22,843 nucleotides of DNA from an uncultured Verrucomicrobia subdivision 3 bacterium (lineage in GTDB: Bacteria > Verrucomicrobiota > Verrucomicrobiae > Limisphaerales > UBA11358). The stretch spans positions 1-22,843 of the forward strand of contig CAINDH010000168.1 in assembly GCA_903847285.1 (NCBI GenBank). Direction: 5' to 3'. This document shows positions 1-22,658 of the stretch, one piece after another (position 1 is the stretch's first letter; each line of letters opens with the position of its first letter). The notes below the pieces were generated by a model. The model was not told the DNA's origin and made no database searches. It worked only from the letters and a program-made list of their open reading frames with translations. The translations under genes were made by a program, and so were the position numbers.

Positions 1-2844
1 CAACGGATCCAACTTTTTTCCGCCGGACTTGTAATCCGTCACCACCGCCAGCACGACATCGCTGTTCGGGTCACGCCAGAAATCCACGCGATCAATGCGG
101 CCTTGTAGCGCCAGCTTGCGCCCGCCGCCCAAATCAATTTCCCAAGCAGCCGCGGCATCATCCTTGCCGCCAAAACCAAACTCCGCTGCCGCCGGATCAA
201 AATCATATTGCGTGTGCATCCAGCTGACGATGACCTCCACAAAATCCTGCAACGCCGCCGCCATCGCCCGCGCCGCAAAACTTGTTTCTGCTGAATCCAA
301 AAACAAGCCGTCGCGGTGCGACTCCATTTGCGTCGCCGCAATCGCGCCAATTCGTTTGCGCGCCTCCGTAGGTGCGAGATCGCGCCAGCGTTTGCCCTCC
401 GCCTGCAACTGCTCCTGGAAAACTTTTAAAACATCATGCTGAAAATTTCCACGTTCGCGGGCATCCAGTTCAAAGACTTTCCGTTCGTTTGCCCGCAGGC
501 CGGAGCGCACGAAAAATTTGAACGGGCATTGCGCGAACTCTTCCAGTCGGCTCACGGAAGAACGCAAAACCGGTGCGTAAAGTTTTTCTGCGTGCGTTGC
601 CGAGAGGTTTTCTTTCTGATCCGGCTCACGCAACGCCGCCAGTTTATCGGCTAGCAATTTCAACGCGGGGATTTGCTGGAGTTCAACTTTTCGCGGGGCG
701 CTTGGATAAGCTAATGTTTGAACTCCAACATCGGTGGCCAGCATTGGCAGGATTTCATTCGGGTGCTGCGCCTCATGCCAGTCCGTATCCGTCGAAAATT
801 CTTCTACCTTAAGCTCTGGAAACATCCGCTGTAATTGTGCCACAAACGATGACGGGTTCAGTGTCTTCCCTTCCGTGCCTTGTTTGGAAAAAGTGATCGC
901 AAGTTTTTCATTCGCCCGCGTGCAGGCGATGTAGCCAAGGTAACGCTCGCGCGAAATCTGATCAAACACACCCGCGCTTAACGCAACGTTTTGCTTTTCC
1001 AGTTCATCGCGGTCTGAATTTGTCAGGATCACCGGCGCGGCGGGCGCGGCCGGAAAAACCGATTCGTTCACGCCTAGCAAGACCGCAAATTTCAAGCTTG
1101 GATTTCGTGCGCGGTCAATTGCGCCCACTAAAACTTCATCAAGCGACGGCGGGATCACGCCCACAGTCAAGTTGCCCAGCCCGGCCTCCAGCACCGGCAA
1201 CCAGTCTTTCAAACGCATCGATTCATACGGGAACGCTAGCTTCAGATTGTCGAGCCACGAATTCATCTGCTCCCAAACTGTTTGGTGCGGCGAGGTGCGC
1301 TGTGTGCTGCGTGCCGCATCCTCGGCATCACGCGTCCAACGTGCCAGCGCGGCTTCGACTTCAAGTTCGCGCCATAGTTCGCGCAACGCTGCGACGAGCT
1401 GTTCACCCGTGGGTTTGAAATTTTGTTTGGCGAACGCGGTATAAAAATTACCGAACGGGGGAAATATAATTTCACGCAGTCGTTCGCTGTCTTCGTCTGG
1501 CAATGGCTCGCGCCATTTTTTTCCTCGCCAGCCGAATTCCAGCGCGGTGTTTTCCAATCGGTCTATTGCTGTTTCTGTAGCGGGCGTAAAGCCGCATTTC
1601 AGCGTGGCAAACCAGTCATCATTTTTCCAGTCGCCAGCCACGGTGCGGAGCGCATTGCGGGTGAGTTCGGCGAGCGGGTGATGCGCCACACTTTCGCGTC
1701 GGTCGAGAAAGAACGGGATTCCGTAGCGGCGAAAAACGCGGGCGAGTGGTTTGTGGTAGCCATCCAACTGCCGCACCAGCGCGGCGCAATCGCGGAAACG
1801 ATTTTTGCCGCCGCTGGCGCGGACGAATTTCAAAACCTCCCGCGCGGCAAACACCGCCTCGGCTTCAGGGTTTGCGCAGGCGGTAATGCTGATTGAGGCG
1901 GGAGGGCCCAGGGTGGAGCATGGAGCGCCGATCTGTAACGTCCAAGATTCTTCGAGCATTGCCAGTTCCGAATCCAACGCAAAACGACTTTTGTCAGCTT
2001 CACGTTTCAGGATCTCCACGTCAACTTGGCTGCCCGGTAAATTTTTTATTTGGTCGCGGCATTGCTGAAACGTCTTGCCGATGGCGGACCAGATCGAGAG
2101 CCATGATTCTGTCGGCGTCGGCTCGGTTTCGAGGCAGAACGCGAGCGTGGCCTGTTCGCAAAACGGCACGATGGCGGCAAGCAACGCTAGTTCCTGTGGC
2201 GTCATTTCGGCAAAGCCATCAAGCCAGAGACCTTCAATTTTTAATTTTGATTTTTTTATTTTGAATTCGCCGCGTAACGCGTCCGTCGCAAAATCCAGCA
2301 GGTTGTTTGCGTCTTGCAAGCCGTGTTCGCGCAACCAGTCACCGTATTTTTCGGAAAGCAGCGCAAGGTCTTGGAGCTTGTCGCGTAGTTCGCTACGAAT
2401 TTTTTTATCGTCGGCCAGCGCGCGCAGCTTTTTTGGCGTGAACTGATGCTCCTGTAATTCCGCGAGTAGTCCGCCCAGTTCCTGTGCGAACCCAGCGCGA
2501 CGCGCGCTGCCATGAAATAATTTCAACTCGTCCGCATGCCGCTGGAGCAGGGCGCGCAACACCATGAGTCGGCCTTCGGCGGACAACAATTTTGGCGGCG
2601 CGAGGTTGAGCTTTTCAAAAACGAATTCCGCGAGGCGATCGAAGGAAAGAATTTGCAACCGAGTGAAGCCGGAAATTTCTGCGCCTTCCAGCAGTTGGCG
2701 TTCGAGCTGGAACGTGGCTTGTTTAGGCGTGAGCAGAATGAGCGGCGGTCCGTCGGGAGATTTCGCCAGTGCGGCGCGCACTTCGGCCAGACAGCGGAAA
2801 GTTTTTCCGCTGCCAGCGGGACCGAGCAGAAAGCGCGCTTGCAC
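1..2844 (-). CDS. addB: AddB-like ATP-dependent helicase/nuclease subunit (C-terminus beyond window)
   Basis: Open frame of 948 codons with no stop, running off the left edge. By family it would pair with AddA to process double-strand breaks for recombination. Residues 8-15 read GPAGSGKT, a Walker A motif. ACTRAN in the second half resembles helicase motif VI. C773 in QCPFKFF matches the first Fe-S cysteine of AddB; the other three would lie outside. The RecB-family nuclease core is at the edge: GRIDRVD (D918), then TDYKSG (D937, K939). I chose GTG at 2844 because homologues begin just before the Walker A strand. GTG at 2859 and TTG at 2868 are in frame, but they fall in repeat DNA, and an in-frame stop lies at 2890-2892. 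No Shine-Dalgarno is visible. Residues 193-204 and about 306-317 look like repeat-derived inserts. AddA is probably beyond the left edge (inference). Confidence 0.88.
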   Translation of the reverse strand, partial: MQARFLLGPAGSGKTFRCLAEVRAALAKSPDGPPLILLTPKQATFQLERQLLEGAEISGFTRLQILSFDRLAEFVFEKLNLAPPKLLSAEGRLMVLRALLQRHADELKLFHGSARRAGFAQELGGLLAELQEHQFTPKKLRALADDKKIRSELRDKLQDLALLSEKYGDWLREHGLQDANNLLDFATDALRGEFKIKKSKLKIEGLWLDGFAEMTPQELALLAAIVPFCEQATLAFCLETEPTPTESWLSIWSAIGKTFQQCRDQIKNLPGSQVDVEILKREADKSRFALDSELAMLEESWTLQIGAPCSTLGPPASISITACANPEAEAVFAAREVLKFVRASGGKNRFRDCAALVRQLDGYHKPLARVFRRYGIPFFLDRRESVAHHPLAELTRNALRTVAGDWKNDDWFATLKCGFTPATETAIDRLENTALEFGWRGKKWREPLPDEDSERLREIIFPPFGNFYTAFAKQNFKPTGEQLVAALRELWRELEVEAALARWTRDAEDAARSTQRTSPHQTVWEQMNSWLDNLKLAFPYESMRLKDWLPVLEAGLGNLTVGVIPPSLDEVLVGAIDRARNPSLKFAVLLGVNESVFPAAPAAPVILTNSDRDELEKQNVALSAGVFDQISRERYLGYIACTRANEKLAITFSKQGTEGKTLNPSSFVAQLQRMFPELKVEEFSTDTDWHEAQHPNEILPMLATDVGVQTLAYPSAPRKVELQQIPALKLLADKLAALREPDQKENLSATHAEKLYAPVLRSSVSRLEEFAQCPFKFFVRSGLRANERKVFELDARERGNFQHDVLKVFQEQLQAEGKRWRDLAPTEARKRIGAIAATQMESHRDGLFLDSAETSFAARAMAAALQDFVEVIVSWMHTQYDFDPAAAEFGFGGKDDAAAAWEIDLGGGRKLALQGRIDRVDFWRDPNSDVVLAVVTDYKSGGKKLDPL
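1895..1929 (-). repeat. Candidate low-complexity insert in addB
   Basis: On the minus strand this GC-rich tract contains GCTCCATGCTCCACCCTG and encodes roughly APCSTLGPPAS, a Pro/Ser/Cys-rich stretch between two ordinary AddB segments. Its internal repetition (GCTCCA twice) and atypical composition suggest repeat-derived sequence, kept in frame. No second copy is visible in the window, so the call is weak. Confidence 0.3.
2233..2268 (-). repeat. AT-rich dispersed repeat as 12 in-frame codons in addB
   Basis: A 36-nt A-rich block in a GC-rich gene, translating on the minus strand to EFKIKKSKLKIE (residues 193-204). Its second half, CAAAATTAAAAATTGAA, closely matches the AT-rich repeats bounding the four-helix-bundle gene at 21296 and 21745. 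The length is a multiple of three, so the addB frame is kept. The seven lysines in twelve residues contrast with their surroundings. Origin by repeat insertion is inference. Confidence 0.6.
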
Positions 2845-3055: not shown

Positions 3056-4915
3056 ATGAAAAAACTCTGGTGGCTTTTATTGTGTAGTTTTTCCGTCGCG
3101 GAGATTTCCTCCGCAGAGGAAACGGTTCTCGCCGATGTCTTTGCCCGTCACGTCACGAGCTTGAACGGCAAGTGGAACGTCATCGTGGATCCTTATGACA
3201 CGGGCTATTTTAATTATCGCCGCCAGCCTTACGACGCAGACGGTCAGGTCACCGGTGGCTACGCGCTTGACGCGCACGCGAAGAACAAGTCTGACCTCGT
3301 TGAATATAATTTCGATACCAGTCCGACGTTGAATGTGCCGGGCGACTGGAATTCGCAGGATCAAAAAATGTTCTACTACGAAGGCTCCGTGTGGTATCGC
3401 AAAAAATTTGACGCCAAGGTTTCAGCGCCCGGCCATCGGCTGTTCGTTTATTTCGCTGCGGCGAATTACGAGGCCAACGTCTATCTCAATGGCAAGCCCC
3501 TCGGCAAACATATCGGCGGCTTCACGCCGTTCGCGTATGAAATCACCGAGCTGGCCAAGGAGAAAAATAACTCGCTTGTCGTGCGCGTGAACAACAACCG
3601 CCATGCCGAGGATGTGCCCACGGTGAATACAGACTGGTGGAACTACGGCGGCCTTACCCGCGACGTGCTGCTGGTCGAGACGCCGGCAACCTTTATTTCC
3701 AACTTCAGCACCCGGCTCAAAGCGGGCACGACGAATACGATTCAGGTGAGCGTTCAGCTTGATGGTGCGGATAAGTCACAGACCGTTGCCGTTAAATTTC
3801 CCTCGCTGAAAATTGCTGCCGAAGTGAAGGCGGACACCAACGGCTTTGCGCGCTGTGAACTGACGTCCCCGAACTTGTCTCTGTGGTCTCCCGAAAACCC
3901 GGCGCTGACGGATGTGGAGGTTTTCGCTGGTGAGGATTCACTCAAGGACCGCGTTGGTTTCCGTTCCATTATGACGAGCGGCACGGAGGTTTTGATGAAC
4001 GGTAAAAGGATTTTTCTGCGCGGCATCTGCATCCACGAAGAGATTGCGACGGAAGGTCGTCGTGCTTGGTCCGAAGCTGACGCGCGCAAGCTTCTCGGTC
4101 AGGCCAAGGAGCTGGGCTGTAATTTTGTCCGCCTCGCGCATTATCCGCATAACGAACACATGGCACGCGTGGCCGATGAGCTAGGCATCCTATGCTGGGA
4201 AGAAATTCCTGTCTATTGGACGATTCAATGGACGAATCCTGCGACGCTGGCGAATGCTCAAAAGCAACTGACCGATTTGATTACTCGTGACCAGAATCGC
4301 GCGAGCGTCATCGTCTGGTCGGTGGCGAATGAAACGCCAGTCAGTGAGCTGCGCACGAAATTTTTGAAGTCGTTGGTGGATGTTGCCCGCGAACTCGATG
4401 GTTCTCGGCTGGTTTCGGCGGCGATGGAAGTTCATTCCGGCACGATGGAAAATCGTCCGGGCACAAAACAGGAAGTGCATAAAGTTGTAGATGACCCCTT
4501 CGGCGAATTTACTGACGTCTGCAGTTTCAATCAATACACCGGCTGGTATGACGGCACACCGGAGAAGATTGATCGCACTACGTGGAGCATCAAATACAAC
4601 AAGCCGGTGTTCATCAGCGAATTTGGTGCGGACGCCAAACAGGGTTTGCATGGCGATGCATCGGAGCGCTTCACTGAGGAATATCAAGCTGACCTTTATC
4701 GCCGCACGCTGGCGATGCTGGACAAGATTCCCGGCTTCAGCGGATGCACGCCATGGATTCTGAATGACTTTCGTTCGCCGCGGCGTCCACTGGCTGGAAT
4801 TCAAGATGGTTGGAACATCAAAGGCCTAACCGGCCATAATGGCGAAAAGAAAATGGCGTTTGATGTGCTGAAAAACTTTTACGACGAAAAGTCAAAAGCT
4901 GACGCGATAAAATAA
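3056..4915 (+). CDS. Secreted glycoside hydrolase family 2, beta-glucuronidase-like
   Basis: A 619-residue exported GH2 enzyme, predicted to cleave beta-linked uronic acid or sugar residues by a retaining mechanism. The start at 3056 is set by GAGG at 3044-3047 and by a clean signal peptide (MKKLWWLLLCSFSVAEISSA, cut near residue 20); the in-frame ATG at 2957 would bury it. A jelly-roll domain is followed by the GH2 hallmark DWWNYGGLTRDV, an Ig-like domain and a TIM barrel. The acid/base is E426 in SVANE and the nucleophile E522 in ISEFGAD. Near the C-terminus N587-I-K589 matches the NxK motif that bacterial beta-glucuronidases use to bind the uronate carboxylate. The length is close to E. 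coli GUS (about 600). Beta-galactosidase-like activity is a less likely alternative. The phosphohexomutase follows after 11 nt, so they may be cotranscribed. Confidence 0.85.
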   Translation: MKKLWWLLLCSFSVAEISSAEETVLADVFARHVTSLNGKWNVIVDPYDTGYFNYRRQPYDADGQVTGGYALDAHAKNKSDLVEYNFDTSPTLNVPGDWNSQDQKMFYYEGSVWYRKKFDAKVSAPGHRLFVYFAAANYEANVYLNGKPLGKHIGGFTPFAYEITELAKEKNNSLVVRVNNNRHAEDVPTVNTDWWNYGGLTRDVLLVETPATFISNFSTRLKAGTTNTIQVSVQLDGADKSQTVAVKFPSLKIAAEVKADTNGFARCELTSPNLSLWSPENPALTDVEVFAGEDSLKDRVGFRSIMTSGTEVLMNGKRIFLRGICIHEEIATEGRRAWSEADARKLLGQAKELGCNFVRLAHYPHNEHMARVADELGILCWEEIPVYWTIQWTNPATLANAQKQLTDLITRDQNRASVIVWSVANETPVSELRTKFLKSLVDVARELDGSRLVSAAMEVHSGTMENRPGTKQEVHKVVDDPFGEFTDVCSFNQYTGWYDGTPEKIDRTTWSIKYNKPVFISEFGADAKQGLHGDASERFTEEYQADLYRRTLAMLDKIPGFSGCTPWILNDFRSPRRPLAGIQDGWNIKGLTGHNGEKKMAFDVLKNFYDEKSKADAIK

Positions 4916-4926
4916 TTTCCATTTCA

Positions 4927-6408
4927 ATGAAAGTTTCCATCAAAGAACTCATGGCGCAGAGCGGTGTGGCTTTTGGCACGAGTGGCGCGCGTGGGCTGGC
5001 CACGGCGATGACTGATTCCGTCTGCTACGCCTACACGCAGGGCTTTCTTCAATACCTAGAATCCATTGGAGAAATCAAGCTGGCAGGGGAGCGTGTCGCG
5101 GTTGGTGGCGATTTCCGCCCCAGCACCGGCCGTGTGATCGAAGCTGTTTGTCGCGCGGCGGAGGACATGGGTTATCAAGCCGTGAACTGTGGTCGCGTGC
5201 CATCACCTGCGGTTGCGCTGTTCGGGTTTGAAAATAAAATTCCGTCCATCATGGTCACCGGCAGCCACATTCCCGACGACCGTAACGGCATCAAGTTCAA
5301 TAAATGCGGTGGTGAAGTTTTGAAGTCGGACGAGCAGGGCATGAGCAGCCAGATTGTGGAACTGGACGATGCGCTGTTTGGGCCCGATGGAAATTTCGTG
5401 AAGGTAAAAACGCCGCATGATATTTCGCCAGAAGCCGGCGAGAATTACGCGATGCGCTACTTAAATTTTTTCGAGCCCGCCGCACTGAAAGGTTTACGTG
5501 TTGGTGTCTATCAACATTCTGCCGTCGGGCGCGATGTTCTGGTGAAAATTTTTTCGCACCTTGGCGCGGAAGTGGCACCGCTGGGACGTTCTGAGAAATT
5601 TATTCCCGTGGACACGGAAGCCATTCGTCCCGAAGACGTGCAACTGGCGCACGAGTGGGCGGCGACGGGGAAGTTTGACGCCCTCGTTTCCGCCGACGGC
5701 GACAGCGACCGTCCGCTCGTCAGCGACGAGGATGGCAACTGGCTGCGGGGCGACATTGCGGGAATTCTTTGCGCGAAATTTCTGGAAGCGGATTCCGTCA
5801 GCACGCCGGTGAGCTGCAACACCGCCGTGGAAAAATGCGGCTGGTTCCGCGACATACGCCGCACGCGCATCGGCTCGCCCTTCGTGGTGGCCTCGATGAC
5901 GGAAGCCACGGACAACGGGGCGAAACGCGTTGTCGGCTACGAGGCTAATGGCGGCTTCCTGCTGAACTCGGACATCGAAAGTGGCGGAAAAGTTCTCCGT
6001 GCCCTGCCGACGCGGGATGCGGTGATTGTGATGCTCGGCATTTTGCTGCTGGCGAAATCGCAGAAACAAACCGTCTCGCAACTTGCCGCGACCTTGCCCG
6101 CGCGGTTCACGGCGAGCGACCGGCTGAAAAATTTTGCCACGGAAAAAAGCATGGCGATCCTGGCGAAGTTCAATTCTGATTCCGAGGCTGCAGACCAGAC
6201 GGAGGTTGAAAAGATGTTTGGCGGGGTTTGCGGCACGGTCAAAAGTTTGAACCGCACCGACGGCCTGCGCATCACCTTTGCGAACGAGGAGGTCATCCAC
6301 CTGCGCCCGTCTGGTAACGCGCCAGAATTCCGTTGCTATGCGGAGGCTTCATCGGATGAACGCGCCCGAGAAATCACCACGCTGGTGCTTGCGAAAATTC
6401 TCGGCTGA
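4927..6408 (+). CDS. Alpha-D-phosphohexomutase (phosphomannomutase/phosphoglucomutase family)
   Basis: A 493-residue cytoplasmic enzyme interconverting hexose-1- and hexose-6-phosphates via a phosphoserine. All four family loops are visible: the phosphoserine loop VTGSHIPDDRNG with S113, the metal loop DGDSD at 257-261, the sugar loop GYEANGG with E339, and the phosphate-binding loop RPSGNAPE from R460. The active-site loop is the TGSHIP variant instead of the commoner TASHNP, which I associate with a phosphomannomutase subgroup. The start at 4927 is the first ATG after the GH2 stop; no Shine-Dalgarno is visible. Substrate (mannose versus glucose) cannot be settled from sequence. It converges on the sulfatase gene with only 13 nt between stops. 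Confidence 0.88.
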   Translation: MKVSIKELMAQSGVAFGTSGARGLATAMTDSVCYAYTQGFLQYLESIGEIKLAGERVAVGGDFRPSTGRVIEAVCRAAEDMGYQAVNCGRVPSPAVALFGFENKIPSIMVTGSHIPDDRNGIKFNKCGGEVLKSDEQGMSSQIVELDDALFGPDGNFVKVKTPHDISPEAGENYAMRYLNFFEPAALKGLRVGVYQHSAVGRDVLVKIFSHLGAEVAPLGRSEKFIPVDTEAIRPEDVQLAHEWAATGKFDALVSADGDSDRPLVSDEDGNWLRGDIAGILCAKFLEADSVSTPVSCNTAVEKCGWFRDIRRTRIGSPFVVASMTEATDNGAKRVVGYEANGGFLLNSDIESGGKVLRALPTRDAVIVMLGILLLAKSQKQTVSQLAATLPARFTASDRLKNFATEKSMAILAKFNSDSEAADQTEVEKMFGGVCGTVKSLNRTDGLRITFANEEVIHLRPSGNAPEFRCYAEASSDERAREITTLVLAKILG

Positions 6409-18050: not shown

Positions 18051-19829
18051 ATGAAAACTACACTCCGCAAATTTCTCGTGGCCTTGTTCACGGCTTGGTT
18101 TTGCAGCAGTGTTAGCCAAGCCGCCACGCTCGCGATTTCGCCCGCTGTCACCAGCAACACCTACAGCGGCGTAGTCACGTTAAGCATCACTGGCCTGATC
18201 AGCGGCGAGCAGGTCAGCCTCCAAAACTGGATTGATGGCAACACCAACGGCGTGATTGACGCTGGCGACTTGCTGATGGACGGCGGCAAAATCAGCGACG
18301 GCGAAGTCATGGTCATCGGCGGCATTACGAACATCATCAAACCATTTGATAGCAATCTTTCAGCGGGAGCCATCACCACGACGCTGAATTTTGCGCCGCC
18401 GTTGACTCTGGAAAACATTGTCGCGCGGCACATTTACCGGCTGTCGAGTCCGAGCAACAATTTCACCGCGACCACCGCGTCGTTCATCGTGACCAATGCC
18501 GCCACCGCCCAGCGCGTCAGCGGCATCATTTACAGCAACGGCGTCACGCCCTTGCCGTATGCGAGCATCGTGGCGACACCGGCGGCAGGCGGCTACGCGG
18601 GCGCGGCGGTGGCGGATGCGAACGGACGCTATTCGTTGAATCTGAATCCCGGAACTTTCAACCTCATCGCCACCGCGCCGAATTATTTTTTTGATTTTTC
18701 ATCCGGCGTGACCGTGGTGCTGACCAACGGCGTTTCCGCCACGAACAACCTCACGTTGACGCGCGGCACGGCCACGATTTCTGGCTACATCTACAATGCG
18801 GGAAACAGTAACAAGCAGGAGGGCGTCATGCTGGAGTTGGATTCAGGAAGTTTGTTTGCCATCGTCTTCAGCGACACGAACGGAAATTATTCCGCCGCCG
18901 TCACGCCGAATTTTTGGCAGGTGCAACCCATCAAAGAACGTTTGGCCCGCCGTGCCGTGGTGGCCGCGCAAAGCCCGCTGCAAGTTGACACCACCTCCGC
19001 GAACGTGACCAACGCCAACCTCGGCTTGCCCAAGGGCAACGCGCTTTACTATGGACGCATCACTGACAACTCCAGTGTGCCATTCAACAACATCCGCATG
19101 AGCGCAGGCGACGGCTCGAATAATTTATACAGCGCCATCGGCTACAGCGATACGAATGGCTACTACGCCGTCGCGGTTTTGGGGAACACCAGCACCGACT
19201 GGAATTGCAGTGCGAATGATTCCGACAACACGGTGCTGGCGAATTACGTCCTGAATAATTTCGGCAATACCAACATCACCGTCGGCCAGGCCATTCTGCA
19301 AAATTATGTCGCGCTGCCCGTGACCGCGCATATTTTTGGACGCGTGCTGGATAATCTTGGCAGCCCCGTCAGCGGCGTTACCCTGTATGCTGATCTGTTC
19401 AACGGCGGGAACAATTATTCGTCCCAAAACATCAGCACGGATATGGCGGGGAATTATACGCTCGGCGTGGCAGCAGGCTTTTGGAATGTTCGTTTCAGCT
19501 ACGGTAACGACGACCTTTCTAGCCACGGGCTGGTGGATTTATTCCAGCCTTATAGCGTCACCATCCCGCCGACCAACATCACGCTCAACATTACCGTTTA
19601 CACGAATGGCACGCCGCTCATCAGCCAGCCGCAACGCCAGTCGGCCACACAATTCGGCTTCAACGTCGTCGGCTCTGTGGGCGTAAATTATTCCGCGCAA
19701 GTCTCAACGAATCTGGCGAAGACGAACTGGACGACGTTTTCCACGTTCACTCTTACATCAAATTATTTTCCCATCGTGGACACGCACGCCACGAACGGCG
19801 CGCGCTTCTATCGGCTGCTGAAAAACTAG
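18051..19829 (+). CDS. Secreted carboxypeptidase-regulatory-like repeat protein
   Basis: A 592-residue exported protein with a signal peptide (LRKFLVALFTAWFCSSVSQA, cut before ATLAIS). After an N-terminal beta domain, four degenerate carboxypeptidase-regulatory-like (prealbumin fold) units are seen at about 156-235, 243-300, 335-390 and 427-490. Each carries a D-x-x-G-x-Y turn: DANGRYSLNL, DTNGNYSAAV, DTNGYYAVAV and DMAGNYTLGV. The C-terminal 60 residues (YSAQVSTNLAKTNWTTF to RFYRLLKN) match a beta domain frequent at the ends of Verrucomicrobial secreted proteins; whether it is a sorting domain is not known. AAAGGA at 18036-18041 fixes the start at 18051. The role is probably structural or adhesive (inference). 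The stop overlaps the convergent livF stop. Confidence 0.8.
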   Translation: MKTTLRKFLVALFTAWFCSSVSQAATLAISPAVTSNTYSGVVTLSITGLISGEQVSLQNWIDGNTNGVIDAGDLLMDGGKISDGEVMVIGGITNIIKPFDSNLSAGAITTTLNFAPPLTLENIVARHIYRLSSPSNNFTATTASFIVTNAATAQRVSGIIYSNGVTPLPYASIVATPAAGGYAGAAVADANGRYSLNLNPGTFNLIATAPNYFFDFSSGVTVVLTNGVSATNNLTLTRGTATISGYIYNAGNSNKQEGVMLELDSGSLFAIVFSDTNGNYSAAVTPNFWQVQPIKERLARRAVVAAQSPLQVDTTSANVTNANLGLPKGNALYYGRITDNSSVPFNNIRMSAGDGSNNLYSAIGYSDTNGYYAVAVLGNTSTDWNCSANDSDNTVLANYVLNNFGNTNITVGQAILQNYVALPVTAHIFGRVLDNLGSPVSGVTLYADLFNGGNNYSSQNISTDMAGNYTLGVAAGFWNVRFSYGNDDLSSHGLVDLFQPYSVTIPPTNITLNITVYTNGTPLISQPQRQSATQFGFNVVGSVGVNYSAQVSTNLAKTNWTTFSTFTLTSNYFPIVDTHATNGARFYRLLKN

Positions 19830-20533
19830 CCGCCGAGATACGCGCTCTTCACTTGTGGATTCTGGCGGAGTGAGGCCGAGTCGCCTTGCAGCGTGATGTT
19901 GCCTGTCTCCAAAACGTAGCCGAAGCTGGAAACTTCCAGCGCGCGGTTCGCGTTCTGTTCCACTAGTAAAATCGTCAAGCCGCGCTCGCGGTTGATCTCC
20001 ACGATCTTTTCAAAAATGGTTTTCACCAGCAGCGGCGCGAGGCCCAGCGATGGCTCATCCAGCATCAGAAACTTTGGCTGGCTCATCAGCGCGCGACCAA
20101 TCGCCAGCATCTGCTGCTCGCCGCCGCTCAAAGTCCCGGCAACCTGCTGCTCGCGTTCCTTCAATCGCGGAAACGTGGCGAAGACAAATTCCAGTTCGCG
20201 CCGGACGATTTTTTTGTCGCGCACCAAATACGCGCCCATCTGCAAATTCTCCAGCACCGTGAGGTTCGCGAAAATCATCCGACCTTCGGGCACGTGCGAC
20301 AAACCGCGCGCCACAATCTCATGCGGAGGCAATCCGGCAATGGTTTTGTCGTCGTAAACGATTTCACCGGACTTCGGTTTCAGCAGGCCAGAAATCGTCT
20401 TCAGCGTCGTCGTTTTGCCCGCGCCGTTACTGCCGATGAGCGTGACAATGCTGCCGGACTGCACGGACAACGAGATGCCTTGCAGCGCATTGATCGCACC
20501 ATAGCTGACGGTCAGATTTTTTATCTCGAGCAT
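19826..20533 (-). CDS. livF: Branched-chain amino-acid ABC transporter ATPase LivF
   Basis: A 235-residue ATPase, one of two that drive the LivHM permease. It has Walker A GSNGAGKT at 34-41, the LivF-typical VPEGRMIFANLTVLENL, signature LSGGEQQ from 135, Walker B FLMLDEPSLGLAP with D159 and E160, and the switch region LLVEQNANRAL. The length is standard. The ATG follows the livG stop with no gap, indicating translational coupling. It is the last gene of the operon, and its stop shares a CTAG with the convergent upstream neighbour. Confidence 0.95.
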   Translation of the reverse strand: MLEIKNLTVSYGAINALQGISLSVQSGSIVTLIGSNGAGKTTTLKTISGLLKPKSGEIVYDDKTIAGLPPHEIVARGLSHVPEGRMIFANLTVLENLQMGAYLVRDKKIVRRELEFVFATFPRLKEREQQVAGTLSGGEQQMLAIGRALMSQPKFLMLDEPSLGLAPLLVKTIFEKIVEINRERGLTILLVEQNANRALEVSSFGYVLETGNITLQGDSASLRQNPQVKSAYLGG

Positions 20534-21295
20534 TTAGTCTCCCAGATACGCCGCGATGACTTTTGGATTCTTGCGCACTTCATCCGGCTTGCCTTCGGCA
20601 ATTTTGATTCCGTAATCCAGCACCACGATGCGCTCGCAAATTTCCATGACGAGCTGCATATCGTGTTCGACGAGCAGAATCGAGATTTGAAACTTGTCCT
20701 TGATGAAACGGATGAGCCGCGCGAGCTCAACTTTCTCCGTCGGGTTCATGCCGGCAGCGGGCTCGTCAAGCAACAGCAATTTAGGTCTCGTCGCCAGCGC
20801 GCGAACGATTTCCAAACGTCGCTGGTCGCCATAAGGCAGACTCTTGGCGGATTCGTCGCGGAATTTGCCGAGATGAAAAATCTCCAGCAACTCCATCACC
20901 TGTCGCGCGATTTCCTTTTCGCCCTCGCGGAAAGCCCGTCCACGCCAGAGCGAATTGATGACGCGCCGTTCGCAATGCAGTTGCGCCGCTGCGCGCACGT
21001 TGTCGAACACCGTGAGCGAACTGAACAGCCGGATGTTTTGAAACGTCCGCGCAATCCCGCGCCGCGCGAGGTGATGCGCCTTGAGTTTGGAAGTTGGCTG
21101 ACTGGCGAAAGAAATTTTCCCCGCCGTCGGCTGATACACGCCGGTGATGAGATTGAAAACGGTCGTCTTGCCCGCGCCGTTTGGGCCAATCAAGCCGACG
21201 AGTTCGCCCACGCCAATCTGCAAATCCAGTTCCGACACTGCCGTCAATCCGCCGAAGAGGATGGTCACGTTTTCAAGTTGGAGCAGAGCGGACAT
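20534..21295 (-). CDS. livG: Branched-chain amino-acid ABC transporter ATPase LivG
   Basis: A 253-residue ATPase partner of LivF. Walker A is GPNGAGKT at 37-44. RGIARTFQNIRLFSSLTVFDNV and the variant signature LPYGDQRRLEIVRAL are LivG hallmarks, followed by Walker B LLLLDEPAAGMNP and LLVEHDMQLVM. The stop directly abuts the livF ATG. The ATG is separated from livM by the four-helix-bundle cassette, whose AT-rich left repeat begins one base upstream of it, so its native ribosome binding site may have been replaced. Confidence 0.95.
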   Translation of the reverse strand: MSALLQLENVTILFGGLTAVSELDLQIGVGELVGLIGPNGAGKTTVFNLITGVYQPTAGKISFASQPTSKLKAHHLARRGIARTFQNIRLFSSLTVFDNVRAAAQLHCERRVINSLWRGRAFREGEKEIARQVMELLEIFHLGKFRDESAKSLPYGDQRRLEIVRALATRPKLLLLDEPAAGMNPTEKVELARLIRFIKDKFQISILLVEHDMQLVMEICERIVVLDYGIKIAEGKPDEVRKNPKVIAAYLGD

Positions 21296-21324
21296 GAATT
21301 AAAAATGCAAAATTAAAAATCAAA
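21296..21324. repeat. AT-rich inverted repeat, livG-side boundary of cassette
   Basis: The plus strand starts GAATTAAAAATGCAAAATTA and continues AT-rich. It is nearly the reverse complement of 21719-21745. It contains the stop codon of the four-helix-bundle gene (TGA, minus strand, 21320-21322) and begins immediately upstream of the livG ATG. Confidence 0.75.
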
Positions 21325-21721
21325 CCTCTCCGCCACGTTTGGTTGAAACGATAATCGCCCCTATCACGCGCCGAATCTCGTCAGCCTCCCGAATTAGCGG
21401 GTTCAAATCATTTATGGAAACGACATTTGCCGGGACGAGCAAGCGGAGTCGCAGATGCGTCTCCCGCGCCTCTTTCAACGCGATGCTCATCTTACTTACA
21501 AAGTCCGCCTTGCTTTGAGCCGCCTGCGCTTCTTCAACATTTGCTGGAACACTGGTTCCGGCACGGAGAATCTGGCTCATCAAAATCCTGCCAACTCCGG
21601 GACGCTCATCCAGCTTGCCGCACAACTGGATGATGTGAACGGCGAATTCAAACGTGCGCTCAACAATGTCCCTTGGCGGAACCTCGTTTGAATCGCCCGA
21701 ACTGGATTCGGCTTTTTTCAT
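21320..21721 (-). CDS. Four-helix-bundle protein (23S rRNA intervening-sequence/S23 family)
   Basis: A 133-residue all-alpha protein. The core ILRAGTSVPANVEEA, then KADFVSKMSIALKEARET, is the hallmark of the 23S rRNA-intervening-sequence four-helix-bundle family; related proteins form ring-shaped oligomers, and one acts with diversity-generating retroelements. The true function is unknown. An N-terminal tail of about 20 polar residues (KKAESSSGDSNEV) precedes helix 1. The gene interrupts the liv operon between livM and livG, in the same direction. Both ends lie in AT-rich inverted repeats: the ATG at the end of the right copy and the TGA in the left. There is no reverse transcriptase or 23S rRNA nearby. 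Acquisition as a cassette is inference. Confidence 0.88.
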   Translation of the reverse strand: MKKAESSSGDSNEVPPRDIVERTFEFAVHIIQLCGKLDERPGVGRILMSQILRAGTSVPANVEEAQAAQSKADFVSKMSIALKEARETHLRLRLLVPANVVSINDLNPLIREADEIRRVIGAIIVSTKRGGEV

Positions 21722-21745
21722 TTTAAATTTTGAATTTTTAATTTC
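21719..21745. repeat. AT-rich inverted repeat, livM-side boundary of cassette
   Basis: On the minus strand it begins GAAATTAAAAATTCAAAATT and ends in the ATG of the four-helix-bundle gene. It aligns with the plus-strand repeat at 21296 with only small gaps and substitutions. It also supplies the last codon and the TAA stop of livM. Confidence 0.75.
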
Positions 21746-22658
21746 TTTTCCTTCGGAAGGAAAAGAGGCCTTGTGGGCGCAAAATCATCAGCACGATGAT
21801 GAGCAACGAGTAGAGGATCATCCGGTATTCCGCGAATCCGCGCAGGAATTCCGGCAGCAGCGTTAGCAGGATGGCCGCGACGATGACACCCGCTGTGCGG
21901 CCCATGCCGCCGAGGATCACCATCATCACGATGTCGATGCTCTTGAGAAAATCAAAGCCGGTCGGCGAGAGGAATTGTTTGTGATGCGCGTAAAGTCCGC
22001 CCGCGATACCGGCGAAAAATGCGCCGAACACAAACGCGGTGACTTTATAGCGCACCGGATTGACGCCGACGGAACTGGCGGCGATCTCGTCGTCGTGGAC
22101 AGCGATGAAGCCGCGGCCGTAAGTCGAATTCACGATGGACGTGATAACAAAAACGGTGATGGCCGCGAACGCCCACGCCCAGAACAGATTTGTTTCATGC
22201 GGAATATTTTTTAATCCGCTGGCTGCGCCGACGCTTTCCATGTTTTGCAAAACCACGCGGATGATTTCACCAGAACCGAGCGTGACTATGGCGAGATAAT
22301 CGCCGCGCAACCGTAGCGTCGGCACGCCGACGGCCAGGCCGGACAGCGCCGCGAGCAAGCCGCCGGACAGCAGCGCCGCGAAAAATAAAACCGGCGCGAG
22401 TTGCGCTGGAATTTTATCCGAAAAGACGATGGAGATTTTCGCCGCCGTGTAGGCGCCAACCGCCATGAAACCCGCGTGGCCCAAGGAGAATTGCCCCGTG
22501 TGGCCGTTGATGAGATTGAGGCTGACGGCGAGGATGACGTTGATGCCGATGTCAATCACCACGCCGAGGTAATAGCGGTTGAACTGCGCCGAAAAAGCCG
22601 ACACGACCGCCGCCACAAAAATGGCCGCGATCAAAAATCGTTTTGCGCCGGAGTTCAT
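21738..22658 (-). CDS. livM: Branched-chain amino-acid ABC transporter permease LivM
   Basis: A 306-residue permease with about eight to ten transmembrane segments, which forms the membrane channel with LivH. Hallmarks are LNLINGHTGQFSLGHAGFMAVGAY near the N-terminus and YGRGFIAVHDDEIAASSVGVNPVRYKVTAF, the cytoplasmic EAA-like loop that contacts the ATPases. VMMVILGGMGRTAGVIVAA and the tail ILRPQGLF also fit. The ATG overlaps the livH stop by one base (TGATG). The stop lies inside the AT-rich repeat of the downstream cassette, so the last residue (RRKRN) may be altered from the ancestral form. Confidence 0.95.
   Translation of the reverse strand: MNSGAKRFLIAAIFVAAVVSAFSAQFNRYYLGVVIDIGINVILAVSLNLINGHTGQFSLGHAGFMAVGAYTAAKISIVFSDKIPAQLAPVLFFAALLSGGLLAALSGLAVGVPTLRLRGDYLAIVTLGSGEIIRVVLQNMESVGAASGLKNIPHETNLFWAWAFAAITVFVITSIVNSTYGRGFIAVHDDEIAASSVGVNPVRYKVTAFVFGAFFAGIAGGLYAHHKQFLSPTGFDFLKSIDIVMMVILGGMGRTAGVIVAAILLTLLPEFLRGFAEYRMILYSLLIIVLMILRPQGLFSFRRKRN

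What the first reader, a model, noticed from the sequence alone, without database searches (positions are those of the whole stretch)
21296..21745. Four-helix-bundle gene framed by AT-rich inverted repeats inside the liv operon
A 450-bp unit sits exactly between livM and livG, which are normally adjacent. Near-identical AT-rich repeats in inverted orientation bound it, and they supply the livM stop, the start and stop of the inner gene, and the DNA just before the livG ATG. This looks like a mobile, non-autonomous cassette that keeps operon polarity. S23/IVP-type genes are known as inserts in 23S rRNA helices; an insert in a protein operon with its own terminal repeats hints at a wider mobile system that needs a helper in trans.
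Basis: partly seen in the sequence, partly recalled or inferred. Interest (0 to 1): 0.75.

Follow-up and report, generated by a model that had tools for sequence, protein, structure and literature searches.

The report
Heptamer-framed four-helix gene, mobile unit
A small gene of the family known from inserts in ribosomal RNA sits between two transport genes, framed by mirror-image runs of a seven-letter DNA repeat; comparison with relatives shows that such framed genes come and go at many places in many bacteria, and how they move is unknown.

Summary
A PF05635/TIGR02436 four-helix gene (21320-21721, minus strand) lies exactly between livM and livG, between inverted AT-rich arms that supply the livM stop, the inner start and stop, and the bases before the livG ATG. 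The arms are degenerate 7-nt arrays. This is general: period-7 arrays flank 64 of 95 distinct PF05635 loci against 18 of 212 neighbouring ORFs; period 8 is a distant second. Heptamers differ from copy to copy (105 types in 164 arrays, core ART) but are shared, inverted, by the two ends of a copy. The unit is gained and lost: livM-livG is filled in 6 genomes examined, the fewest state changes on the tree are 6, and the nearest relative (97%) is empty. On Nostoc-type plasmids units stand in place of 314-328, 188-197 and 64 bp of target. One copy lies inside 23S rRNA, and a published 23S insert has heptamers before its S23 start (PMC4990558), so rRNA intervening sequences look like one case of this class. 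Mechanism and helper are not shown: reverse transcriptase is not associated; HUH transposase is, but its genes carry no heptamers.

The parts
21297..21744 (-). whole unit: inverted heptamer-type arms with the four-helix-bundle gene between them
   Evidence: absent from the same junction in L072 and others
21320..21721 (-). four-helix-bundle gene, PF05635/TIGR02436, 133 aa, stop included
   Evidence: AlphaFold2 model pLDDT 86, four helices; best PDB match 2RLD
21714..21744 (-). upstream arm: period-7 array AAATTAA AAATTCA AAATTTA AAATGAA, holds the livM stop and the inner ATG
21297..21324 (-). downstream arm, inverted partner (89% over 28 nt), holds the inner TGA; livG ATG follows
21744..21766 (-). 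11-bp palindrome at the 3' end of livM, present at the 6 filled sites (one base lost in G010) and in one empty relative (L092), with paired changes in 3 of 11 base pairs (7 sequences)
21738..22658 (-). livM (branched-chain amino acid permease); its last codons differ from those of the nearest, empty relative (L072)
20534..21295 (-). livG (ATP-binding subunit)
19826..20533 (-). livF-type ATP-binding subunit; its junction with livG is empty here but filled in G003 and G005
2233..2267 (-). possible solo array of five degenerate heptamers, in frame in an AddB-like gene (weak by itself: period-7 score 8.5 against 8.0 for period 6)
   Evidence: three relatives hold clear arrays of other heptamers at this place

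Best explanation
The unit is a mobile element made of one four-helix-bundle gene and two inverted arrays of a copy-specific heptamer of the form ARTNNNN. It is the same kind of thing as the S23-bearing intervening sequences of 23S rRNA, but in a protein operon. SHOWN by comparison: the unit is discrete, gained and lost, dispersed in many copies, and on plasmids stands in place of target DNA. INFERRED: it spreads by copying at broken or stalled DNA. A free 3' end pairs with an existing unit through its heptamer array, synthesis copies through the gene, and the other broken end is joined through the second array, so that target DNA between the ends is lost. The arms fold back on each other as single strands, which keeps them alike and lets them drift together to a new heptamer. 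The protein, which resembles the DGR accessory protein Avd in fold, would bind the array as DNA or RNA and hold the ends. In the liv transcript the arms would form a panhandle around the gene.
For: Period 7 at 64 of 95 loci against 18 of 212 controls; other periods at most 5 of 95. Genomes drawn evenly from two phyla: array or inverted arms at 22 of 29 Bacteroidota and 22 of 29 Verrucomicrobiota loci. 14 of 14 fetched plasmid loci (of 23 records found), 13 of 14 by period alone. Own arms match far better than exchanged arms (79/153 against 15/1530). Filled/empty status needs 6 changes for 6 filled sites. G003 carries genes at both liv junctions, G005 only at livG-livF. Plasmid pairs: a unit in place of 314-328 bp inside a DNA methyltransferase gene that is annotated whole in three relatives; in place of 188-197 bp; in place of 64 bp at a cas1 end. 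Arms change together in two cases: 3+3 against 4+4 heptamers at one locus, and a 24-nt repeat in both arms of L141. dN/dS 0.07-0.16 for the gene. RNA panhandle z -3.0. Avd among fold matches (4DWL, TM 0.66, E 0.02).
Against: No movement has been watched. 31 of 95 loci lack an array above threshold, 7 of 29 in each phylum sample lack both signs, and several Clostridia copies have heptamers upstream only. Period-7 arrays are common near other genes too in Bacteroidota (7 of 23 controls), and occur without the gene: 14 in 400 kb of G099, so the arrays may be the primary thing and the gene a passenger. Arm lengths correlate weakly (0.25, p 0.06, 55 elements). The tree is a quick one with 9 of 27 inner branches unresolved, so 6 changes could be fewer on the true tree. 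In L130 a 5-nt word, ACAGG, adjoins the unit on both sides, which could be a short duplication; L131 at the same site has none. Microhomology at the left junction (7, 4 and 4-5 nt by eye in three of four comparisons) is too little to test. In the liv operon the shared livM tail also fits transfer by ordinary recombination. Synonymous sites of the liv copies are near saturation. Unrelated four-helix proteins (pectin methylesterase inhibitors) score about as well as Avd in the fold search.
Confidence: 0.6

Rival explanations
1. The heptamer arrays are the mobile or self-expanding thing, and the four-helix gene is cargo or a host gene that gathers between inverted arrays.
For: Solo arrays and short inverted pairs without the gene: 14 arrays in 400 kb of G099, 5 with an inverted partner 30-125 nt away. 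Arrays near 7 of 23 control ORFs in Bacteroidota. One AddB linker holds different heptamer arrays in G035, G001 and G027 and none above threshold in the other relatives read. A solo CCTTTTT array sits at livM-livG in G030 (L080). Published Xanthomonas and Nostoc heptamers, many in inverted pairs in Xanthomonas (PMC4692102).
Against: Among neighbouring ORFs scored in the same way, 0 of 162, 0 of 23 and 0 of 30 have inverted arms at 28 or more, so the framing goes with this family. Heptamer likeness rises with protein likeness (3.83 against 3.60+-0.03 of 7 for pairs 40-70% identical), though shared base composition could add to that.
Confidence: 0.21
2. A helper in trans moves the unit: an HUH (Y1) transposase of the RAYT kind acting on hairpin ends, or a reverse transcriptase acting on the panhandle RNA with the protein as Avd-like partner.
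For: PF01797 in 20 of 24 gene-rich against 6 of 16 gene-free Bacteroidota genomes (Fisher p 0.006). Avd-like fold.
Against: No PF01797 found in G067, G095, G096, G108, which carry 6, 9, 5 and 8 copies. Y1 genes have no heptamers, 0 of 18; most have other inverted flanks. RVT_1 shows no association (11/24 against 5/16, p 0.51) and was not found in 6 of 16 other genomes with 3-11 copies. Many of these genomes are in pieces, so absences are soft.
Confidence: 0.14
3. The gene is an old stable part of the liv operon, lost now and then, and its flanks are only AT-rich spacers.
For: The five closest hits of the genome scan all lie in liv operons. LivG (half of it readable in G010) tells less than LivM: 87% identical to the window's, synonymous difference 0.58, near the inner gene's 0.65.
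Against: Empty relatives beside the filled ones, fewest changes 6 for 6 filled; two different junctions used; window and G010 share 91% of LivM but only 79% of the four-helix protein, while window and G001 share 66% and 82%; the same anatomy is found at unrelated loci.
Confidence: 0.05

Closest known systems
23S rRNA intervening sequences (IVS) with S23/IVP open reading frame
   Same: PF05635 gene; terminal inverted repeats forming a stem; tandem heptamers (GACAGAT) just before the start codon and a 28-bp terminal stem in the published case (PMC4990558, passages read); L010 here is such a 23S copy.
   Different: The window unit lies in a protein operon, with heptamers of another sequence at both ends.
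Avd, accessory protein of diversity-generating retroelements
   Same: Four-helix fold (4DWL, 8UBE among matches).
   Different: 18% identity and E only 0.02, beside unrelated four-helix proteins; no association with reverse transcriptase seen.
Bacterial heptamer repeats (cyanobacterial STRR, Xanthomonas GGGAATC, Beggiatoaceae TAACTGA)
   Same: Tandem 7-nt units close to gene ends, in Xanthomonas often as inverted pairs (PMC4692102 passages and one section, PMC4679880 passages). The name STRR is from the listing and recall.
   Different: The main texts of those two papers have no occurrence of 'S23' or 'four helix'; here the arrays frame one gene family.
REPINs with RAYT (Y1_Tnp) and MITEs
   Same: Short inverted ends, dispersed copies, small or no gene (features recalled).
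   Different: Ends differ from copy to copy, no clear target-site duplication, and Y1 genes in the same genomes lack heptamers.

Membership tests
23S rRNA IVS with S23 ORF | PF05635 reading frame | tested here: met
23S rRNA IVS with S23 ORF | terminal inverted repeats that close a stem | tested here: met
23S rRNA IVS with S23 ORF | heptamer array before the start codon (known to me from one published IVS) | tested here: met
23S rRNA IVS with S23 ORF | location inside an rRNA gene | tested here: not met
   between livM and livG; met by L010
23S rRNA IVS with S23 ORF | excision by RNase III without ligation | not testable with these tools
   needs RNA
IS element / MITE | target-site duplication | tested here: inconclusive
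   three filled/empty pairs show loss of target (314-328, 188-197, 64 bp) and no duplication adjoining the unit in L133, L142 or L131; L130 has a 5-nt word (ACAGG) on both sides
IS element / MITE | same terminal repeat in all copies | tested here: not met
   105 heptamers in 164 arrays; exchanged arms rarely match (15 of 1530)
REPIN/RAYT | Y1_Tnp gene associated with the same repeats | tested here: not met
   0 of 18 Y1 loci with heptamers
Diversity-generating retroelement | cognate reverse transcriptase with template and variable repeat | tested here: inconclusive
   RVT_1 not associated with the gene across genomes; template repeats were not searched
STRR-type heptamer repeats | tandem, degenerate 7-nt units | tested here: met

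The most novel reading that the evidence does not exclude
A class of mobile element without a transposase of its own: one four-helix gene framed by inverted heptamer arrays that are private to each copy, share only an ART core, evolve in concert, and enter DNA by replacing it. The rRNA intervening sequences known since 1990 would be its members that happened to land in 23S genes, and the scattered heptamer repeats of many bacteria its solo or gene-free remains. The arrays may be written onto both broken 3' ends in telomere-like fashion, since as a rule the purine-rich strand is the one that runs 3' into the unit on both sides.
Probability: 0.4. Interest if true: 0.93.

Novelty: new variant of a known kind. 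Interest (0 to 1): 0.82.

Why it matters
The function and origin of S23-bearing intervening sequences are still called unclear in the 2016 paper whose passages I read (PMC4990558). If they are a special case of a dispersed, heptamer-framed element, the question can be studied in ordinary operons and plasmids with clean filled and empty sites. It would also give a home to heptamer repeats that were described separately in several groups of bacteria. PF05635 genes occur in 45 of 61 Bacteroidota and 41 of 59 Verrucomicrobiota genomes sampled, so this may be a common source of operon remodelling.

Tried and rejected
Reverse transcriptase as obligate helper: 10 of 16 genomes with the gene have RVT_1, and in Bacteroidota 11 of 24 rich against 5 of 16 lacking; no support. 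The rich set is 24 of the 25 genomes with 5 or more copies (G056 was left out), the lacking set all 16 without a match. HUH transposase: associated but without heptamers at its own genes, 0 of 18 with an identifiable ORF of 22 looked at. Heptamer copied from the target: clear only in the methyltransferase case (CAATTCG stands once in the empty target at the junction); 4 to 5 nt in two others and none in the cas case, by eye; left as a lead. Equal arm length as a rule: correlation 0.25, p 0.06; not supported. The RRT core alone: 88 of 107 against 73.8+-3.6 in shuffled heptamers; the seven-column logo (A .81, R .94, T .83, N4) fits better than shuffled heptamers, log-likelihood 232.5 against 190-197.

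Literature: in the searches no listed title or abstract start links heptamer arrays with PF05635 genes; the one paper with both is PMC4990558. Only listed papers were seen (one search listed 15 of 1,205, 15 of 101, 15 of 52, 20 of 42), three were read in passages, and the library holds open-licence papers only.

Limits of the counts: (37 of 74 against 0 of 162) counts a few loci twice that came in under two locus numbers; one search uses distinct proteins, and those plus one search's. L008 and L014 gave no intact frame and were left out; L038 and L041 had short flanks. The tree count leaves out L075 (contig ends) and L098 (partial LivM), and counts L005 as empty at livM-livG. The loci are the strongest family matches, not all.

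Full report
What is in the window. The minus strand reads livM (21738-22658), a 133-codon gene (21320-21721), livG (20534-21295), livF-type (19826-20533). The inner gene matches PF05635 (6.5e-20) and TIGR02436 (3.8e-25). Its model has four helices (pLDDT 86) and matches 2RLD and 2GSC, the only PDB sequences found by sequence as well, then, at E 0.02, Avd of a phage diversity-generating retroelement beside unrelated four-helix proteins. Two inverted arms of 28 nt, 89% complementary, bound it. The arms pair in the predicted RNA around the gene (z -3.0, 1 of 100 shuffles as low).

The arms are heptamer arrays. The upstream arm reads AAATTAA AAATTCA AAATTTA AAATGAA. In relatives from several phyla the same gene stands beside or between arrays of other heptamers, such as GTGAAAA, AATGCGG, AATTAAG, AGTTGAG. 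Over periods 4 to 11, a tandem score of 10 or more is reached at period 7 by 64 of 95 distinct loci and 18 of 212 control ORFs of the same loci; at each other period by at most 5 of 95. In genomes drawn evenly from two phyla, 16 of 29 Bacteroidota and 17 of 29 Verrucomicrobiota loci pass at period 7 (controls 7 of 23 and 1 of 30), and 13 and 15 have inverted arms at score 28 (controls 0 and 0); 22 of 29 have one or both in each phylum. Period 8 passes at 4 and 5 of 29 (controls 0 and 0), a smaller excess. On named plasmids, 14 of the 23 records found were fetched and all 14 show arrays or arms.

Each copy tends to have its own heptamer. 164 arrays from 110 elements hold 105 different heptamers; aligned by rotation they share A, A/G, T and four free positions. 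The two arms of one element often match each other (79 of 153 at 28 or more), arms of different elements rarely do (15 of 1530). Arms change together in two cases: one Nostoc plasmid locus has 4+4 heptamers in two plasmids and 3+3 in a third, and L141 has the same 24-nt repeat inside both arms. Array length is only weakly correlated between arms in general. Two Planktothrix copies differ upstream by gaps of 7 and 21 nt. Heptamer likeness rises with protein likeness.

Gain and loss. Of 49 genomes in the family of G001, 27 have a close LivM. At livM-livG, L073, L084, L085 and L094 of these carry the unit, as do G003 (L003) and the window; of the other 23, L075 ends before livG and 22 do not carry it. 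The window's nearest relative G035, 97% identical over LivM and LivG, is empty. On the tree the fewest changes of state are 6 for 6 filled sites, 28 rows counted; it is a quick tree with 9 of 27 inner branches open. G003 has a second gene with arrays between livG and livF, and G005 has one only there. LivM of the window and G010 is 91% identical, their four-helix proteins only 79%; for G001 the figures are 66% and 82%; LivG, half readable in G010, is 87% identical and tells less. Filled sites share an 11-bp palindrome at the end of livM (96% of cells paired, paired changes in 3 of 11 pairs, 7 sequences); one empty genome, G034, has the palindrome as well. Whether it is a target, a remnant or part of what travels cannot be told.

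Filled and empty sites elsewhere. On Nostoc and Anabaena plasmids: a unit stands inside a DNA cytosine methyltransferase gene in L133, L134 and L136, in place of 314-328 bp of the gene that L146, L147 and L148 have whole; one strain (C057) carries both states on two plasmids. In L142 a unit stands in place of 188-197 bp of L143-L145. In L130 and L131 a unit stands between cas2 and cas1 in place of 64 bp of L149. No duplication adjoins the unit in L133, L142 or L131; in L130 the word ACAGG adjoins it on both sides. L135 has a unit between a helicase and a methyltransferase gene where L261-L263 have none.

Link to rRNA inserts. L010 (Cloacimonadota) has its gene (3934-4336) inside an LSU rRNA match (3343-5222); its flanks hold only degenerate heptamer-like repeats, seen by eye, which did not reach the period-7 threshold. 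The paper on the Coxiella insert, of which I read passages, reports tandem GACAGAT heptamers before the S23 start and a 28-bp terminal stem (PMC4990558). This is the anatomy described here. It is one published case and one weak case of mine, not a survey.

Arrays without the gene. 14 period-7 arrays (and 6 of period 8) lie in the first 400 kb of G099, 5 of the 14 with an inverted partner nearby; 1 in 360 kb of G161. An AddB-like gene of the window has a possible solo array in frame (2233-2267); the same linker holds clear arrays of three other heptamers in G035, G027 and G001, and none above threshold in the other relatives read. So arrays seem to turn over at one site.

Mechanism. Host enzymes, a helper in trans and an RNA route are all open. 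Tests of two helper families are in Tried and rejected. I favour copying during repair of broken DNA, because target DNA is lost, ends vary, and arms evolve together; this is inference, and I give the particular route about one chance in three, while the mobility of the unit itself I hold at about 0.85.

Noticed in passing
L080 and L081, livM-livG junction: G030 has a solo CCTTTTT heptamer array at this junction; G032 has a 167-bp gap bounded by another inverted repeat (ACCACGGATGGACACAGATG...), without a four-helix gene found there (by eye). The junction may be a hot spot.
   Followed up: partly
L130, L131, L135, L138, L140: Four-helix unit between cas2 and cas1 on Nostoc/Anabaena plasmids; others lie in defence or modification operons (L138 drmD, L140 DUF1156/Swt1-HEPN, L135 helicase/methyltransferase), by annotation.
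   Followed up: partly
G120:C14:220758-226839 and G104:C11:492107-498082: Clusters of several PF05635 genes a few kb apart in Bacteroidota.
   Followed up: no
several of L019-L033: Clostridia copies with heptamers, then what looks by eye like a terminator hairpin and a promoter before the gene, and no downstream array.
   Followed up: no
L271, L280, L278, L274: Y1_Tnp genes flanked by REP-type palindromes such as GGGCTTTAGCC in Bacteroidota.
   Followed up: no
window 2233-2267: In-frame AT-rich heptamer-like stretch in an AddB-like gene, at a linker that holds other heptamers in three relatives.
   Followed up: yes
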